64,000 bases of DNA from Aquimarina sp. AU58 (GTDB lineage Bacteria > Bacteroidota > Bacteroidia > Flavobacteriales > Flavobacteriaceae): NCBI RefSeq assembly GCF_900312745.1, contig NZ_OMPD01000014.1, positions 682,001 through 746,000 on the forward strand, given 5' to 3'. The notes under the pieces are model-generated. The model was not told the DNA's origin and made no database searches. It saw nothing but the letters and a program-made list of their open reading frames with translations. The position numbers and the translations under genes were made by a program. Of the stretch, positions 5,461 through 61,114 are shown in pieces; the first letter of the stretch is position 1; every line of letters starts with the position of its first letter.

Positions 5461-5958
5461 ATGAAAAAATTAATGTATTGCTCAATCTTTATTTTATCTC
5501 TATTTTCTTTTATTGCTTGTGACAAAGACGAAACTGAATCCGTTGAACCTACAAATGTAATAGAGACTGAAACAAGTATTCTAAACCAATTAGAAACAAA
5601 CAACCTTAAATCAGAGTCGTCAATTACCCGAGCTTCTTCTATAGATGGTCAATATACTATTAAAGGATGTGATGGTGGTCCTGGTTATGGTTTTTTTACC
5701 GTTAGTACAGTAAACGGGAGAGTGCAAGCTAGAGGTCAATTTGATTTCATTTATTTTACTATATACGGAAGATTAAATTCTGAAGGTAATTATGTATTTA
5801 ACTGGCAGGAATCTGCGCTTGATAATGATCCAAGAACAGGAGTTAAATCAACTCAGGTAGGTATGTATATTAGTGCAGACAGATCAATAACTCGCGGATG
5901 GGTGAGAAACATTAGGTTTAATGGAGAAATAGAGATCACAAATCGTTATTGTAAGTAA
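5461..5958 (+). CDS. Small secreted lipoprotein of unknown function
   Basis: The 165-residue protein has a lipoprotein signal peptide ending FSFIAC (Cys20) followed by an acidic linker (DKDETESVEP). Residues about 60-165 are rich in short beta strands, aromatic residues and glycine (GYGFFTVSTVNGRVQARGQF), and two cysteines (in KGCDGG and at NRYCK near the C-terminus) could form a disulfide. I do not recognise the family. The gene stands alone between its own promoter candidate and a strong hairpin at 5992-6017, so it is probably monocistronic. Confidence 0.6.
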   Translation: MKKLMYCSIFILSLFSFIACDKDETESVEPTNVIETETSILNQLETNNLKSESSITRASSIDGQYTIKGCDGGPGYGFFTVSTVNGRVQARGQFDFIYFTIYGRLNSEGNYVFNWQESALDNDPRTGVKSTQVGMYISADRSITRGWVRNIRFNGEIEITNRYCK

Positions 5959-6108: not shown

Positions 6109-6129
6109 CAGTTCCGAAAAATGAAACTG
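6109..6129 (-). repeat. Dispersed stem-loop element, copy 1 (core only)
   Basis: Read on the minus strand this contains AGTTTCATTTTTCGGAACTG, the exact 20-base core also found at 30110-30129 and 61090-61109. The ends pair as a seven-base stem with one G-T wobble around a seven-base loop. The upstream GTACAATGATAA block of the other two copies is not present here. Confidence 0.7.
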
Positions 6130-6200
6130 AGACCTAATAGATATATAAAAACTAAATATTGAAAATGCTCTTCGAAAGAAAAAAATTGATAAATAAAAGA

Positions 6201-6348: not shown

Positions 6349-6933
6349 ATGTCAGAGTTTTGGCTTTATATAAAGCTGGGTTTTGGTCACGTGCTAGATT
6401 GGCATGCTTATGACCATATTTTATTTCTAATTGCGCTAACAGTAGGGTATACTTTTGATAACTGGAAACGTATTTTATTACTGGTTACCATATTTACAAT
6501 AGGACATACATTGTCTTTATTCCTGGCAGCATATGATGTAGTATCAGTAAATTCGAGATTGGTAGAATTCTTGATTCCTGTAACCATTTTGATTACAGGA
6601 TTGTTTAATGTATTTACTGTAAAGAATACTTCAAAAAACAGTAAAATAGGAATCTTATACGGAGTAACTCTTTTTTTTGGATTAATTCATGGATTAGGGT
6701 TTTCTAGTTATTTTAGAGCAATTAGTAGTAATGTGAATTCTAAAATTTTACCCTTAATTGAGTTTGCATTAGGGGTTGAAGTTGCACAGATTGTTATTGT
6801 TTTATTAGTTCTTATAGTTAGCTTTATATTTCAGACCTTTTTTCGATTTTCAAAACGAGATTGGATACTTGTTGTTTCTTCTATTGTAATAGGGATGGTA
6901 ATCCCCATGCTTATTGCAAATAAAATTTGGTGA
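6349..6933 (+). CDS. HupE/UreJ family membrane protein
   Basis: The 194-residue protein has about six membrane helices. The HupE/UreJ_2 signature is clear: LGFGHVLDWHAYDHILFLIAL at the start and FGLIHGLGFSSYFR in the middle, with histidines in helices that may bind nickel or another metal. Related proteins carry nickel or cobalt for hydrogenase or urease, but neither enzyme is encoded here and the short form in Bacteroidota has no settled role. It starts the plus-strand run followed by dCMP deaminase (86-base gap) and the S41 protease. Confidence 0.85.
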   Translation: MSEFWLYIKLGFGHVLDWHAYDHILFLIALTVGYTFDNWKRILLLVTIFTIGHTLSLFLAAYDVVSVNSRLVEFLIPVTILITGLFNVFTVKNTSKNSKIGILYGVTLFFGLIHGLGFSSYFRAISSNVNSKILPLIEFALGVEVAQIVIVLLVLIVSFIFQTFFRFSKRDWILVVSSIVIGMVIPMLIANKIW

Positions 6934-7019: not shown

Positions 7020-7451
7020 ATGTCAAAAAAAAAACAACTGAAGTACGATAAAGCCTATCTAAGGATTGCAAGAGAATGGGGAAAGTTATCTCATTGTGAA
7101 AGAAAAAAAGTTGGTGCGGTTATTGTAAAGGATAGAATGATTATTTCAGATGGATTTAATGGAACCCCAACAGGTTTTGAGAATCCATGTGAAGACGAAG
7201 AAGGATATACAAAGTGGTATGTATTGCATGCAGAAGCAAATGCGATTTCTAAAGTAGCTTCTTCTACTCAATCATGTAGAGGAGCAACATTATATATTAC
7301 ATTATCACCATGTAAGGAGTGTAGTAAATTGATTCACCAGGCAGGAATAAAACGCATAGTGTATCAAATAGGTTATAAAGATGACTCTGGTTTGCAGTTT
7401 CTTGCTAAAGCTGGAGTAGAAATAGAACAGATTACGGATTTAGAAGAATAA
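7020..7451 (+). CDS. Deoxycytidylate (dCMP) deaminase family protein
   Basis: The 143-residue protein is a zinc-dependent deaminase. It has the catalytic HAEANAI block (zinc-binding His and proton-shuttling Glu) and the PCKECS block with two zinc-binding cysteines. The N-terminal part GAVIVKDRMIISDGFNGTP with ENPCED is typical of ComEB-type dCMP deaminases, which convert dCMP to dUMP for dTTP synthesis. The stop codon overlaps the ATG of the S41 protease by one base (TAATG), so they are translationally coupled. A TTTG (6956) with TACTTTG (6982) gives a loose promoter upstream. A tRNA or free-base deaminase is less likely given the ENPCED insert. Confidence 0.88.
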   Translation: MSKKKQLKYDKAYLRIAREWGKLSHCERKKVGAVIVKDRMIISDGFNGTPTGFENPCEDEEGYTKWYVLHAEANAISKVASSTQSCRGATLYITLSPCKECSKLIHQAGIKRIVYQIGYKDDSGLQFLAKAGVEIEQITDLEE

Positions 7452-9606: not shown

Positions 9607-10188
9607 CTAAATAGTGGTTAATAGCTCTTTAATATTTGCCGTAAATAATTTAACTGCAATAGCCAGCAAAATTACTCCAAATATTTTCCGTATCACATTA
9701 ATTCCTTGCTTACCAAGTACTTTTTCTATTTTTCCAGAGGATTTTAGAACAATATATACAAAGATAATATTAATTAGTATCGCTATTATTATATTAACTG
9801 TATGATACTCTGCTCGTAAAGATAAAATCGATGTCATAGTACCTGCTCCTGCAATAAGAGGGAAAGCAAGTGGAACTACAGCTGCAGTTTCGGGAGCGTC
9901 ATCTCTATATAATTGAATACCTAATATCATTTCTATAGCTAAAAAGAAAATAATGAAAGAACCTGCAACAGCAAAAGAGTTAACATCTATACCAATTAGG
10001 CTCAGAATTTCCTTTCCTACAAATAAGAAAAGAATCATTAAAATTGCTGCTACGATAGAAGCCTTTTCGCTTTGTACATGGCCTACTTTTTTACGAAGAT
10101 CTAAAATAATCGGAATACTTCCTATGATATCTATTACAGCAAATAGAACCATACTCGCAGTCAATATTTCTTTAAGGTCAAAGTTCAT
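9607..10188 (-). CDS. MarC family integral membrane protein
   Basis: The 193-residue protein has about six membrane helices. The start FAVIDIIGSIPIILDLRKK and the middle PLAFPLIAGAGTMTSIL match the MarC (UPF0056) family. Despite the name, taken from the multiple antibiotic resistance locus, MarC proteins have no proven transport function. The small membrane protein at 9395-9595 follows closely. The gene is divergent from the DUF3109 gene with 114 bases between start codons. Confidence 0.9.
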   Translation of the reverse strand: MNFDLKEILTASMVLFAVIDIIGSIPIILDLRKKVGHVQSEKASIVAAILMILFLFVGKEILSLIGIDVNSFAVAGSFIIFFLAIEMILGIQLYRDDAPETAAVVPLAFPLIAGAGTMTSILSLRAEYHTVNIIIAILINIIFVYIVLKSSGKIEKVLGKQGINVIRKIFGVILLAIAVKLFTANIKELLTTI

Positions 10189-16560: not shown

Positions 16561-17007
16561 TTATTTAATTTTAGTGAAAGTCCATGCCTCTTTAAATGTT
16601 TGTCCCTCTTCAGTATATTCAAATTCATATTTTAAAGTAGTTTCTGTAAGCTCTAAAATGGTATTATCAGTAGTAAGACTAATTGCATTACCTAGTTCGT
16701 CTAATGTTAATGTTAGAGTGTTTTCTGATAGTTTCCAGGTTCCTTTATCCAAATCGTCGGGAGTGCAATTAACTCCCCCTGCAAAACCCCCATATGTTTG
16801 TTCCTCATAAGTGCCATCTGCTTTTATTTCTAGAGTACTTAATAGTTCACAATCATCATTTGGGATGTCAGTAATAGCTACTACATCCCATTTTCCTACG
16901 ATTAGGTCTTTATTTGTAGGTGTTTCTTGTTTTGAAGCGTCATCATCTTTGGAGCAAGAAATAAAAATTAATGTAATTAGTAAGGTAAATAGGCTTAGTT
17001 TTTTCAT
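16561..17007 (-). CDS. Lipocalin-like lipoprotein, tandem copy 1
   Basis: The 148-residue protein has a lipoprotein signal ending LIFISC (Cys18) and an SKDDD linker. The mature part begins LIVGKWDVVAI, an N-terminal strand with the G-x-W pattern of lipocalin-like domains in Bacteroidota, followed by an alternating beta pattern (TLEIKADGTYEEQTYGG, GTWKLSENTLTLTL, WTFTKIK). Two cysteines (DDCELL and GVNCTP) could form a disulfide. It is a paralogue of the gene at 17081-17500, 73 bases upstream on the same strand. Ligand and role are unknown. Confidence 0.75.
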   Translation of the reverse strand: MKKLSLFTLLITLIFISCSKDDDASKQETPTNKDLIVGKWDVVAITDIPNDDCELLSTLEIKADGTYEEQTYGGFAGGVNCTPDDLDKGTWKLSENTLTLTLDELGNAISLTTDNTILELTETTLKYEFEYTEEGQTFKEAWTFTKIK

Positions 17008-17080
17008 AGTTGTAAAAAAATGATCATTATTTATTGTTCTTAAATAAGTGTTATAGAAAGAATAATTGTTACCATATCGA

Positions 17081-29004: not shown

Positions 29005-29781
29005 CTACACTTCTCCCTGGTTAGGATCAAAATCATCATCCAATTCTTGTTCAGTTTCCGATTTGCCATGTAAACGACGTTCAATAGATAGGTTATATTG
29101 CTCGGTAAGCGCATTGAGATTACCAATATAAGTTTCAAATTGGCTAATACCTTTAGTTTTGGCTCTGATAAAAATCCAGTCAAGTACTTCTCGAAGTGCT
29201 GCAGTAGTACGTTTTCGTAACTCAGTAATATTAAGATTACTTTGCTCACGTTGCTGTTCTTTAAGCCTAGCTTTAAAGATACTATCAAAAGATTGATGCG
29301 CATCTTTCATCTCATTAAAATATTTACGTTGGTGTAATGCGTCTATAGCTGTACCTAATTTAGAATCTTCTTCGACTTCCTCTATAATCTCATCCATTAC
29401 CCCGCCTTGTTGATTATACGCCATATCATAAATGGCTGTACCGTGTTTGGTAATCGCTTTGTAGACAAGATTAGCTTGATTACGGTCATTTTCATCCCGG
29501 GCAAAATCGGCAATGAGTTTTACTCCTCGTTGTACCAGTTTAAGCCCGTTATCACGATACCGGTCCAACATAGCCAGTTCTGGAGTAAGAATACTTCCTC
29601 TGTTTTTCTTATATACAGTTTTAAAGCTGTCGTATTCTGATGTAAGTTTATCGATATAGGATGTTAACTCCATTGCGCCCAGATCTTGCTCATTGCTTAA
29701 TTCTAATAGTGTACGAGTGTATTTAGAGAATTCCCCGTTTTTAAAATTTTCTAGTTTTGGTGCTACTAATAAGTCTTTCAT
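29005..29781 (-). CDS. DUF6261-like helical protein
   Basis: The 258-residue protein is predicted to be almost all alpha-helical, with no signal peptide or membrane segment and an acidic tail (EQELDDDFDPNQGEV). The pattern (KDLLVAPKLENFKNGEF start, DGLKLVQRG-like helices, LDWIFIRAKTKG near the C-terminus) resembles DUF6261 proteins, a Bacteroidota-specific family without known function; I am not certain of the family name. It stands alone: the SusD terminator lies after it, and a long repeat-rich region lies before it. Confidence 0.65.
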   Translation of the reverse strand: MKDLLVAPKLENFKNGEFSKYTRTLLELSNEQDLGAMELTSYIDKLTSEYDSFKTVYKKNRGSILTPELAMLDRYRDNGLKLVQRGVKLIADFARDENDRNQANLVYKAITKHGTAIYDMAYNQQGGVMDEIIEEVEEDSKLGTAIDALHQRKYFNEMKDAHQSFDSIFKARLKEQQREQSNLNITELRKRTTAALREVLDWIFIRAKTKGISQFETYIGNLNALTEQYNLSIERRLHGKSETEQELDDDFDPNQGEV

Positions 29782-30089: not shown

Positions 30090-30134
30090 GTACAATGATA
30101 ATACATGGTAGTTTCATTTTTCGGAACTGGGATT
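30090..30134 (+). repeat. Dispersed 45-base stem-loop element, copy 2
   Basis: GTACAATGATAA, seven variable bases, then TAGTTTCATTTTTCGGAACT and GGGATT. The same layout with identical spacing occurs at 61070-61114 (38 of 45 identical). The stem-loop AGTTTC...GGAACT is followed here by seven T residues, so this copy could also act as a weak terminator. Confidence 0.75.
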
Positions 30135-58964: not shown

Positions 58965-61010
58965 TTATTTTAATATAAAAGCTCCCTTTTTGTCTATACG
59001 ATGAAAAGGGATTTTTTGTTTTTCACAACTGATTTCCCACTGATCGATATAACTTTTGTAATTGCTCGCATCTACAACGATTTGTTTTGGATGCAAACTA
59101 TCTATTACTCTATCCAGATGAATTTTTGGGGAATTCGACAAAATAATAATATCAGGATAAAAGCTTTTGATATGATAGATTGAAGTACTATCAATAACCA
59201 TAATCGTTTGTTTTTTATATTGATAGATGTTTTTTAATTGCATAACTGTATCTAAAGTAGCCTGATTCTTAGTAAGATAATTGCCAAATAAAAAATGCTG
59301 AGTTTTTACTGCAATAGAATCTTTACTGTATATTCTAAATTGTTGGTTTTCTAAGATCCCTAAAGTAGTATTACGTTGGTTATGAAATACAATTAATTCT
59401 TCTAGATTCGAAATAGTATACTTTTCATATGTCAAAACAGAGAACAGTGTAATTATTGATACTCCTAACGCGTACAATTTTTTCCTTTCAAATTTTTTGA
59501 ACATCATGACCAAAAGAATAATAGTCAGGTATGAGATGATGCACATACTGGTCGAGAAAGGAATATTTTTAATAACAAAACTTTCTTGGTCAGCTATCCA
59601 TCCAATAATAATATTCATGATGTCAATACAATTACCAAATAAGGCAGCTATAGGTTCAGGGAGAATATTTAGATAAGCGAGTAGAATGACCAAAATACCA
59701 AAGCCAAGAATACCTCCCAAAAAAGGAAGAATAATAAGATTAGAAATAAAAAACAAAAGAGGGAACTGATGAAAATATAATAATGTGAGAGGTAATAATC
59801 CAAGTTGAGCAGCCATAGTAACTGTAAATATTTCCCAAAGTTTTTTAGAAAGATAAAATCCAGGCTTATATATTTTAAATAATAATGGTTGTATCCAGGC
59901 TATCGCAAAGACTGCTAAATAACTTAATTGAAACCCTACCGAAAACAATAGCAAAGGATTAAAACAAATGAGTATAAACAGAGAAATAAACAATGAATTG
60001 TAAATACTTGTTTTGGATCTAATTTTTATTCCTATAGCAAGAAAAGAAAACATAGTTACTGCCCTAAGTACTGATGGGGATAACCCCGCGATAATTGCAA
60101 AACACCAAAGTGATAAAATAGTGAGAATTAATTTGATTACTTTTCCGTTTTTATGATACCTGTTAAGAGGTTTTAAGATCAAATTTAATAGGAGTAAAAT
60201 GATTCCGACATGAAGTCCTGACACTGCCAAAATATGAATAGCTCCGGCATCTCTGTAATTATCAAAAACATCTTGACTTATATCTTGTCTTTGCCCCAAA
60301 AGCAAAGCATTAATAATAGATAACTGTGTAGAGTTAAAATTGTATTTAGATAGTTTTAAATTACTGGTTTTTCTGATTTGATTTGCTACATAACCCAGAG
60401 AATATTCGATTTTATGGTTATCAATGAGTTGATGAGGTAATACAACGATCTTATGAGATATGTATTGAGAGTCTAAATATTTTGAATAATCAAATTGGTA
60501 TGGATTTAAAGCATGAGGAATAGGTTTTAATGCGGTAAATGTGGTATACGTATTGCCTATATCCAAAACATTTTGTGTGCTATCTTTTGCTACCTGAAGT
60601 ACTATTTTACCATGTACAGCTTTGCTATCTACAAATTTGGTAGATACAATGTATTTATTATAGTAGGATGAAGGTTTTAATCGTTCTTTAATGTAAAATT
60701 GAATCCCTATATCATAGGGTTGCTCTTTTAGATTTATATGATTGCTGTAATGGTTTGAATAGTTCTTTGGGTTGTGGATTTTGACTAAAGCGATTCCGAA
60801 AATGATAAAAACAATCGCCGTTATAATAACAAAAGAATGCCCTTTGCTAAACATCCTTTTTGATCGTTTCCATGAAACGCCAAGTATACATATAGAGATT
60901 GAGAAACTTAATACTACAATTTCGGGAACAATAGTCAAATGATACCCGATGAGTATGCCAAGTAAGGTCGAAATTGTAATGACTATAAAAGGAATATTAA
61001 TGAGTTTCAC
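58965..61010 (-). CDS. ComEC/Rec2 family DNA-uptake channel
   Basis: The 681-residue protein has an N-terminal helical/DUF4131 region (about 1-190), a competence domain of about eight to ten membrane helices (about 225-500; HILAVSGLHVGIILLLLNLIL, AGLSPSVLRAVTMFSFLAIG) and a C-terminal soluble part (about 525-681). ComEC imports single-stranded DNA in transformation. The C-terminal part has the outline of a metallo-beta-lactamase fold but lacks the HxHxDH metal motif, as in other flavobacterial forms I recall. It is divergent from nothing; the NlpC/P60 gene is upstream on the same strand. Confidence 0.88.
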   Translation of the reverse strand: MKLINIPFIVITISTLLGILIGYHLTIVPEIVVLSFSISICILGVSWKRSKRMFSKGHSFVIITAIVFIIFGIALVKIHNPKNYSNHYSNHINLKEQPYDIGIQFYIKERLKPSSYYNKYIVSTKFVDSKAVHGKIVLQVAKDSTQNVLDIGNTYTTFTALKPIPHALNPYQFDYSKYLDSQYISHKIVVLPHQLIDNHKIEYSLGYVANQIRKTSNLKLSKYNFNSTQLSIINALLLGQRQDISQDVFDNYRDAGAIHILAVSGLHVGIILLLLNLILKPLNRYHKNGKVIKLILTILSLWCFAIIAGLSPSVLRAVTMFSFLAIGIKIRSKTSIYNSLFISLFILICFNPLLLFSVGFQLSYLAVFAIAWIQPLLFKIYKPGFYLSKKLWEIFTVTMAAQLGLLPLTLLYFHQFPLLFFISNLIILPFLGGILGFGILVILLAYLNILPEPIAALFGNCIDIMNIIIGWIADQESFVIKNIPFSTSMCIISYLTIILLVMMFKKFERKKLYALGVSIITLFSVLTYEKYTISNLEELIVFHNQRNTTLGILENQQFRIYSKDSIAVKTQHFLFGNYLTKNQATLDTVMQLKNIYQYKKQTIMVIDSTSIYHIKSFYPDIIILSNSPKIHLDRVIDSLHPKQIVVDASNYKSYIDQWEISCEKQKIPFHRIDKKGAFILK
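58983..59017 (+). terminator. Terminator overlapping the comEC 3' end
   Basis: TCCCTTTT (58983-58990) pairs with AAAAGGGA (59004-59011) and is followed by TTTTTT. It lies 32 bases after the hydrolase stop and inside the last codons of the opposite-strand comEC gene. Confidence 0.6.
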
Positions 61011-61069: not shown

Positions 61070-61114
61070 GTACAATGATAAGAGACCCTAGTTTCATTTT
61101 TCGGAACTGGGATT
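61070..61114 (+). repeat. Dispersed 45-base stem-loop element, copy 3
   Basis: GTACAATGATAA, seven variable bases, TAGTTTCATTTTTCGGAACT and GGGATT, with the same spacing as at 30090-30134 and in the same orientation. It lies between comEC and the NlpC/P60 gene, upstream of comEC. No T tract follows, so it is not a terminator here. Confidence 0.75.

What the first reader, a model, noticed from the sequence alone, without database searches (positions are those of the whole stretch)
30090..30134. Undescribed-looking 45-base dispersed element with conserved stem-loop
GTACAATGATAA, seven free bases and TAGTTTCATTTTTCGGAACT-GGGATT occur at 30090-30134 and 61070-61114 with identical spacing (38/45 identical), and the 20-base core AGTTTCATTTTTCGGAACTG recurs at 6110-6129 on the other strand. 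All three lie in gaps between genes. An exact 20-mer shared three times in one window is unlikely by chance. It could be a REP-like element, a mobile mini-element or a protein-binding site. The seven variable bases between two fixed blocks suggest two recognised parts.
Basis: partly seen in the sequence, partly recalled or inferred. Interest (0 to 1): 0.65.

Follow-up and report, generated by a model that had tools for sequence, protein, structure and literature searches.

The report
Dispersed promoter of an Aquimarina regulon
The repeated 45-base stretch looks not like a mobile repeat or an RNA hairpin but like a promoter with a built-in regulator-binding site that marks some 20-30 places (DNA uptake, toxin-type and secreted proteins) in part of the marine genus Aquimarina, and at some of the same genes sister species carry a quite different promoter instead.

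Summary
In detail: the 20-mer occurs three times in the window (expected 0.02), its 19-base core 36 times with up to 3 mismatches in the 6.2 Mb genome, reversed control 0. The interpretation changes. On the opposite strand it reads AGTYYCRAAAAATGAAACT-N9-TAnnATTGYA: an operator-like site at one fixed distance from a box like the Bacteroidota -7 box. The next called gene reads away from it in 66 of 73 sites: comEC (window), Rhs/YD proteins, VgrG, a deacylase, an integrase. Stem covariation is within shuffles. Outside the genus: 0 of 394 sampled genomes of the order; within: 20 of 52. Copy number follows a 90-residue winged-helix family, often encoded just upstream: the best candidate regulator (inferred). 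In sister species comEC, the deacylase, the integrase, an OmpH-like gene and some Rhs genes have an ECF-sigma-type promoter, GGTAACA-N14-RACAY, which also precedes the winged-helix gene behind a sigma-factor operon (14 of 16). A prediction that the swap is regulon-wide failed for one further gene (0 of 10). Window copy 3 is a decayed promoter whose gene is missing. No wet-lab evidence.

The parts
61090..61108 (-). Operator-like site of the comEC promoter (gene strand: AGTTCCGAAAAATGAAACT)
   Evidence: same site upstream of comEC in 16 of 16 element-bearing genomes examined
61073..61080 (-). -7-like box TATCATTG, 9 bases after the operator
   Evidence: offset 9 is the only offset of TAnnATTG in 132 palindromes
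58965..61010 (-). comEC (DNA-uptake channel protein), proposed target gene
   Evidence: Pfam Competence PF03772 E 8e-59; NCBIfam ComEC_N-term over cut-off, ComEC_Rec2 equivalog under it
30110..30128 (-). Operator-like site, copy 1
30093..30100 (-). -7-like box TATCATTG of copy 1
29005..29781 (-). DUF6261 gene, proposed target of copy 1 (start about 330 bp downstream)
   Evidence: PF19775 E 2.6e-19; homologous genes 323 and 231 bp downstream of an element in G018 (L066) and G016 (L155)
6110..6128 (+). Operator-like site, copy 3: orphan; the box position (6138-6145, TAGATATA) is decayed
   Evidence: in relative G026 (L150) the same place has an intact box and an open gene that the window lacks
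6349..6933 (+). HupE/UreJ-like gene (named by eye) now next to the orphan site; the element's presumed former target lay between them
17048..17073 (-). One ECF-sigma-type site GGTAACA-N14-RACAY in the window, 40 bp upstream of lipoprotein gene 16561-17007 (minus)
   Evidence: G000:C2:699048-699073 (-), converted to window coordinates; (L328)

Best explanation
The element is a regulated promoter shared by some 20-30 places per element-rich genome. On the gene strand it is an imperfect palindrome AGTYYCRAAAAATGAAACT, exactly 9 bases, then TAnnATTGYA. Inferred mechanism: a dimer of a 90-residue winged-helix protein (2-12 matches per genome with 6 or more elements, a few of them broken; often encoded just upstream of an element) binds the palindrome where the -33 contact would lie and recruits or positions RNA polymerase carrying the main sigma factor at a non-ideal -7 box. 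One copy of the winged-helix gene sits directly behind an ECF sigma factor operon, usually preceded by that sigma factor's probable own promoter type, so a cascade ECF sigma -> winged-helix protein -> regulon is likely. Shown by sequence: the two-block site, its spacing, its placement, its conservation at orthologous genes, and the co-occurrence and linkage with the winged-helix family. Inferred: that this protein binds it, that it activates rather than represses, and the cascade.
For: (1) Box after the 19-mer: in 30 loci picked by the core alone, TAnnNTTG stands at offset 9 in 20 and at one other offset (22) once. In all 132 distinct palindromes fetched by any route, TAnnATTG is at offset 9 in 86 and at none of the 30 other offsets; TAnnNTTG at offset 9 in 121 (many of these loci were found with model R1, which includes the box). 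(2) Next called gene (at least 80 codons) reads away from the site in 66 of 73, orthologous sites included; in the own genome 19 of 23 strong copies, against 11 of 23 for the upstream gene. (3) Upstream of comEC in 16 of 16 and of the deacylase gene in 13 of 16 element-bearing genomes examined. (4) Winged-helix family: at least 2 matches in all 15 genomes with 6 or more elements, 0-1 in the other 18; 29 of the best 80 family loci have an element (up to 4 mismatches; 22 with the box by pattern), same strand, from -100 to +400 bp of the gene's stop, where about 0.2 is expected (my estimate). (5) AlphaFold model: three helices plus beta-hairpin, block means of pLDDT 90-94 for residues 11-60; best folds NiaR, then IclR and BirA among others. 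(6) The gene follows the ECF operon in 16 of 16 element-bearing and 0 of 12 other loci, with the ECF-type site before it in 14 of 16.
Against: No transcription start, binding or expression data. Model R1 and the winged-helix query both come from the window's genome, so detection of both falls with distance, which inflates their correlation; most positive genomes are one clade. 50 of 80 winged-helix loci have no element nearby (one more has the reversed-centre form). Foldseek has no match at E<=0.001 and the HTH_11 score is below its cut-off (19.9 of 25). An operator centred near -31 is also where repressors bind. No common motif was found upstream of the winged-helix genes as a whole. In the own genome two strong copies (L034, L048) face a gene on the other strand, and 10 of 30 core-only loci lack the box at offset 9. 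The TA and TG of the box in the logo were required by the search pattern and are no evidence.
Confidence: 0.6

Rival explanations
1. The element is the promoter of another alternative (ECF-type) sigma factor: -35 = GAAAC, -10 = TTGYA; the palindrome is incidental or aids binding, and the winged-helix gene is only a linked passenger.
For: GAAAC-like AAC is conserved and lies at the same distance from TTGYA as AAC from RACAY in GGTAACA-N14-RACAY (counted by hand); a fixed spacing suits a sigma factor.
Against: The far half AGT-YC is conserved too (A 51, G 49, T 53, C 49 of 53, with at most 4 mismatches allowed); TA and TTG have the gap of the main-sigma box; no element-specific sigma gene was found: the one ECF locus traced is present with and without the element. 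Other sigma genes were not traced.
Confidence: 0.2
2. Operator of an unidentified regulator other than the 90-residue winged-helix family, with the main sigma factor; the winged-helix genes co-occur by common descent of linked modules.
For: Only co-occurrence and linkage tie the family to the site; many such genes have no element nearby; no other gene family was tested for co-occurrence except the ECF partner.
Against: Correlation holds inside the positive genomes (rho 0.91, n = 15) and in G011, which branches apart in the tree; 30 of 30 element-linked members keep SKT[KT][LV]YR in the recognition helix, while 38 of 50 others match S[KR]T[KT]LYR, a weak contrast.
Confidence: 0.15
3. A REP-like or mobile mini-element, or a transcribed RNA hairpin.
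For: Dispersed copies; two Y1-transposase genes in the genome, one with a palindrome of this kind directly in front (L061); 98.6% of stem cells pair if G-U is counted.
Against: Stem covariation within shuffles; no Rfam match in the window at threshold, and in 20 element loci 10 sub-threshold hits, none at the element; kept at orthologous promoters across species; the stem lies upstream of the -7-like box, so it would not be transcribed from this promoter; gene-directed orientation.
Confidence: 0.03

Closest known systems
Bacteroidota main-sigma promoter, -7 box TAnnTTTG (PMC9723704, passages seen)
   Same: TA and TTG with the same three-base gap; upstream of genes
   Different: A instead of the first T of TTTG in 49 of 53; where a TTTG-type -33 block would be (recalled) stands a conserved palindrome
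Flavobacterium psychrophilum motif SM5, TAnnTTGY (PMC9723704, passages seen)
   Same: TA, TTG and a following pyrimidine
   Different: SM5 has the TA-TTG gap one base shorter; no palindrome is mentioned in the passages seen
ECF-type promoter GGTAACA-N14-RACAY of the same genus (found here)
   Same: Marks some of the same orthologous genes; AAC at the same distance from the downstream block
   Different: Different blocks, no palindrome; found in front of the ECF operon itself
NiaR/BirA/IclR-type winged-helix DNA-binding domains
   Same: Predicted three-helix plus wing fold
   Different: A free-standing 90-residue domain; no ligand or enzyme domain; sequence below the HTH_11 cut-off
Vibrio competence/type VI secretion co-regulation (recalled, not looked up)
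   Same: comEC and VgrG/Rhs-type genes under one control signal
   Different: Different regulators and phylum; co-expression not shown here; VgrG with the element was seen in one relative (G019), not in the window's genome

Membership tests
REP/BIME elements of RAYT transposases | Conserved stem with compensatory changes | tested here: not met
   1 of 6 pairs with changes on both sides, 323 of 500 shuffles reach that
REP/BIME elements of RAYT transposases | RAYT (Y1_Tnp) gene in the genome, flanked by copies | tested here: inconclusive
   2 Y1_Tnp genes; one is preceded by a palindrome of this kind (L061)
REP/BIME elements of RAYT transposases | GTAG tetranucleotide at the stem (recalled) | tested here: not met
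   at 2 of 30 core-selected copies
Rfam Flavo-1 RNA | covariance-model match at the element | tested here: not met
   none at gathering score in the window; in 20 element loci one sub-threshold hit (23.9 of 42 bits), about 1.3 kb from the element
Main-sigma (TAnnTTTG) promoter | -7 box TA-N3-TTG at constant position | tested here: met
   offset 9 in 20 of 30 core-selected loci and 121 of 132 palindromes overall
Main-sigma (TAnnTTTG) promoter | -33 TTTG block (recalled) | tested here: not met
   that place holds CGAAAAATG or CAAAAAATG
Main-sigma (TAnnTTTG) promoter | transcription start a few bases after the box | not testable with these tools
   no transcript data
ECF sigma promoter | AAC-bearing -35 and about 16-base distance to -10 (recalled) | tested here: inconclusive
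   AAC present at a compatible distance, but palindromic and with a main-sigma-like box
HTH_11 winged-helix proteins (candidate regulator) | Pfam profile match over cut-off | tested here: not met
   19.9 bits of 25
HTH_11 winged-helix proteins (candidate regulator) | winged-helix fold | tested here: met
   predicted model H3-19, H26-33, H37-49, E54-57, E62-65; top fold NiaR, probability 1.00 but E 0.015
HTH_11 winged-helix proteins (candidate regulator) | binds the palindrome | not testable with these tools
   needs a binding assay

The most novel reading that the evidence does not exclude
A partial regulon hand-over inside one genus: in one branch of Aquimarina an ECF sigma factor directly serves comEC, the deacylase, an integrase, an OmpH-like gene and some Rhs genes; in the other branch a winged-helix regulator was placed behind that sigma factor and the same genes were moved, promoter by promoter, onto the winged-helix operator, with G011 and G015 caught in transition at the deacylase gene. 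The regulon would couple toxin-type/contact-dependent proteins (Rhs, VgrG) with DNA uptake (ComEC).
Probability: 0.4. Interest if true: 0.75.

Novelty: new variant of a known kind. Interest (0 to 1): 0.6.

Why it matters
It turns an anonymous repeat into a readable regulon with a named candidate regulator, usable at once to predict co-regulated genes in a genus for which my ten library searches listed no such regulon. The mutually exclusive promoter types at orthologous genes offer a natural series (old, mixed, new) for asking how a regulon changes its controller. The gene list (ComEC, Rhs-type proteins, one with a nuclease tip nearby, VgrG in a relative) suggests, without proving, a link between killing neighbours and taking up DNA in marine Bacteroidota.

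Tried and rejected
RNA hairpin: covariation within shuffles, no Rfam family. REP/RAYT: orientation and orthologous placement do not fit. Integron attC in the repeat array near C2:100-114 kb (L033): considered, dropped when two of the exact GGTAACA-N14-RACAY places and the look of the repeats pointed to promoters in front of genes. Sigma-54 promoter (recalled consensus): the spacing does not fit (by eye). ECF sigma factor as the factor that tells element-bearing from element-free genomes: its partner gene is in both. A shared motif upstream of the winged-helix genes: none found for the whole family. Regulon-wide swap: a prediction written before I saw the result (note, sent in the same batch) said that orthologues of the serine-hydrolase gene in ECF-type genomes would carry the ECF site; 0 of 10 do, so the swap is partial. 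Direction of the swap: not settled by the tree, where G011 (element) and G024 (ECF) branch apart from their types and some nodes have low support; the one-mismatch ECF site 12 bases before the deacylase start in G015, the usual place, favours ECF first.

Choices that affect counts: 'element-bearing' means the 15 genus genomes with 6 or more R1 matches plus G056 (16 exact sites); G008 and G032, with one R1 match each, are counted as non-bearing; six more genomes with exact sites (G060, G064, G068, G069, G072, G074) were not examined further. Model R1 used 23 of the 30 fetched copies (L003, L018, L019, L022, L027, L028, L030 left out by eye for weak flanks or a different class). The logo used sites with at most 4 mismatches to one core and the box pattern at 9, so conservation there is partly by construction. 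Of 54 further ECF-motif places in G005 and G024, 40 stretches were fetched; with the 30 loci they gave 57 downstream proteins, of which 7 had BLAST homologues in the element gene list; the deacylase, integrase and lipoprotein pairs were noticed by eye and checked afterwards. Gene calls are longest-ORF heuristics, not a gene finder.

Full report
OBSERVATION. The three 20-mers are there, at 6109-6128 (-), 30110-30129 (+) and 61090-61109 (+), against 0.02 expected. Copies 1 and 2 share 40 of 45 bases. In the whole genome (6.19 Mb, 16 contigs) the 19-base core occurs 36 times with up to 3 mismatches and the reversed control 0 times. Twenty-three of 30 fetched copies, aligned without gaps, gave a sequence-only model that finds 30 places at E<=2e-4.

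WHAT IT IS. Read on the other strand, a typical copy is AGTYYCRAAAAATGAAACT, nine bases, TAnnATTGYA. In the 30 loci chosen by the core alone, TAnnNTTG stands at offset 9 in 20 and once at another offset, 22. In 132 distinct 19-mers from all fetched loci, TAnnATTG occurs at offset 9 in 86 and at none of the other 30 offsets, and TAnnNTTG at offset 9 in 121; many of these loci were fetched with the model, which includes the box. The next called gene reads away from the site in 66 of 73, orthologous sites included. In the own genome this is 19 of 23 strong copies, against 11 of 23 for the upstream gene. Two of the four exceptions (L055, L056) have the centre of the palindrome reversed and face a gene on the other side; the other two (L034, L048) belong to a locally repeated 97-base stretch. 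The box resembles the -7 box TAnnTTTG of flavobacterial main-sigma promoters (positions -12 to -5 in PMC9723704, passages seen), so the palindrome would lie at about -40 to -22, where a -33 contact would be.

NOT A HAIRPIN. Paired as a stem, 98.6% of cells in 23 copies form standard pairs counting G-U, but covariation is within shuffles (35 of 500 reach the score; 323 of 500 the number of two-sided pairs). In 53 unrelated sites the promoter-near arm GAAACT hardly varies, while the far arm is AGTYYC, so changes are one-sided. No Rfam family matches at threshold, and none of 10 sub-threshold hits lies at the element.

PLACEMENT ACROSS SPECIES. The genus is taken to be Aquimarina from the titles of the best 80 of 166 related records: all Aquimarina except one bin titled Bacteroidia bacterium. 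The exact two-block pattern is in 20 of 52 genomes of the genus, reversed control 0, and in 1 of 395 genomes sampled over the order, that one being the window's own. The model finds it in 17 of 56 relatives, all in the genus: 15 with 6-30 matches, 2 with one. Upstream of comEC it is present in 16 of 16 element-bearing genomes; upstream of the D-aminoacyl-tRNA deacylase gene (named by its sequence, recalled) in 13 of 16 (absent in G014, G023, G029). Other downstream genes: 18 Rhs/YD-type proteins (named by eye), five of a 233-residue family, four serine hydrolases, two DUF6261, two OmpH-like and others; a VgrG in G019; and a tyrosine integrase close to a nuclease-tipped Rhs-type fragment. Window copy 3 has lost its box; in G026 the same place has an intact element followed by an open gene that the window lacks, so copy 3 is probably a leftover of a deleted gene.

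CANDIDATE REGULATOR. A 90-residue protein is often encoded just upstream of the element. Its family has 2-12 matches in each of the 15 genomes with 6 or more elements and 0-1 in the other 18 (15/0/0/18, rho 0.95 overall, 0.91 within positives). Of the best 80 family loci, 29 have an element on the same strand close behind the gene, 22 of them with the box by pattern. AlphaFold gives a winged helix, nearest to NiaR, IclR and BirA structures (E 0.015 at best). Caution: query and model both come from the window's genome, and most positives are one clade, so the correlation is partly shared descent and detection range. Binding is inferred.

TWO PROMOTER TYPES AT THE SAME GENES. Among 14 non-bearing genomes examined for each gene, comEC has GGTAACA-N14-RACAY within 260 bp in 9 (8 exact, 1 with one mismatch; a further one-mismatch hit in G024 looked unconvincing), and the deacylase gene has it exactly in 10. 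No genome has both types intact at either gene. G015 has an element plus an ECF site with one mismatch at the deacylase gene, and G011 an element plus a one-mismatch remnant. The same contrast holds for an integrase (77.6% identical between G000 and G024), an OmpH-like gene (72% identical, G019 and G005), a lipoprotein (FKBP-like by eye; 55%, in G000 with a reversed-centre palindrome and a variant box TATTATCG) and Rhs-type proteins (about 30%). An ECF-type site (GGTAACA, 13-15 bases, RAC) stands right before the gene of an ECF sigma factor (Pfam Sigma70_r2) in 11 of 28 loci, so it is probably that factor's own promoter type; exact copies per genome against reversed control: 18/2 (G000), 43/2 (G005), 31/3 (G024). 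Behind this sigma operon the winged-helix gene is present in 16 of 16 element-bearing and 0 of 12 other loci, with the ECF-type site in front of it in 14 of 16 (not G016, G021). Hence the proposed cascade.

A FAILED PREDICTION. If the swap were regulon-wide, the serine-hydrolase gene, which has the element in 11 of the 15 element-bearing genomes held for it, should have the ECF site in the others. It has it in 0 of 30 loci, including 0 of 10 ECF-type genomes; most of these share another promoter-like stretch. The swap is partial. The tree of ComEC plus deacylase (29 genomes, FastTree) groups most element genomes and most ECF genomes, but G011 and G024 branch apart, so the number and direction of changes are open.

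LITERATURE. Ten searches of the open-access library listed nothing whose title or abstract start describes this element, this winged-helix family or an Aquimarina regulon of this kind; three of the lists were cut at 8 of 22, 12 and 11 papers. Only listings were seen, except passages of PMC9723704. Subscription papers are not covered.

VERDICT. A real, genus-restricted (as far as sampled), promoter-type regulatory site with a strong candidate regulator; the regulator and its sign of action remain to be tested.

Noticed in passing
window 17048-17073 (-): One ECF-type site GGTAACA-N14-RACAY lies 40 bp before a small lipoprotein gene (16561-17007, minus).
   Followed up: partly
L033 (C2:100000-119999): 5729-5797, 7037-7105, 9872-9940: Repeats in a gene array that look at first like integron sites contain GGTAAC-type promoter sequence at the starts of genes; other genes in the same stretch lie next to the element instead.
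   Followed up: partly
L162-L167, L184 (behind pfkA-like gene): At one site behind a pfkA-like gene the order winged-helix gene - element - secreted Rhs-type gene recurs across species, while the start of the Rhs-type gene differs from species to species: a possible exchange hot spot.
   Followed up: no
L196, L203, L204: A 110-residue member of the winged-helix family sits beside C39-type exporters (by eye) and, in L204, a small double-glycine peptide gene, also in genomes without the element; it may be the ancestral setting.
   Followed up: no
L061 / L198 (C3:136 kb): A Y1-transposase (RAYT-like) gene lies behind a winged-helix gene and a perfect AGTTTCA-TTTTT-TGAAACT palindrome; similar palindromes with the same flanks occur at L060 and L062.
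   Followed up: partly
L436-L445 (serine hydrolase upstream): Element-free genomes mostly share TTTTCATACMTTAG-like sequence before this gene; L428, L429 and L431 (element-bearing genomes without an element here) have it too.
   Followed up: no
L138 (G019): A VgrG gene (PF04717, PF05954) has the element 219 bp upstream.
   Followed up: partly
L200 (C2:2206000-2218000): An integrase gene and a nuclease-tipped (LHH) Rhs-type fragment lie near two elements about 2 kb apart on opposite strands.
   Followed up: partly
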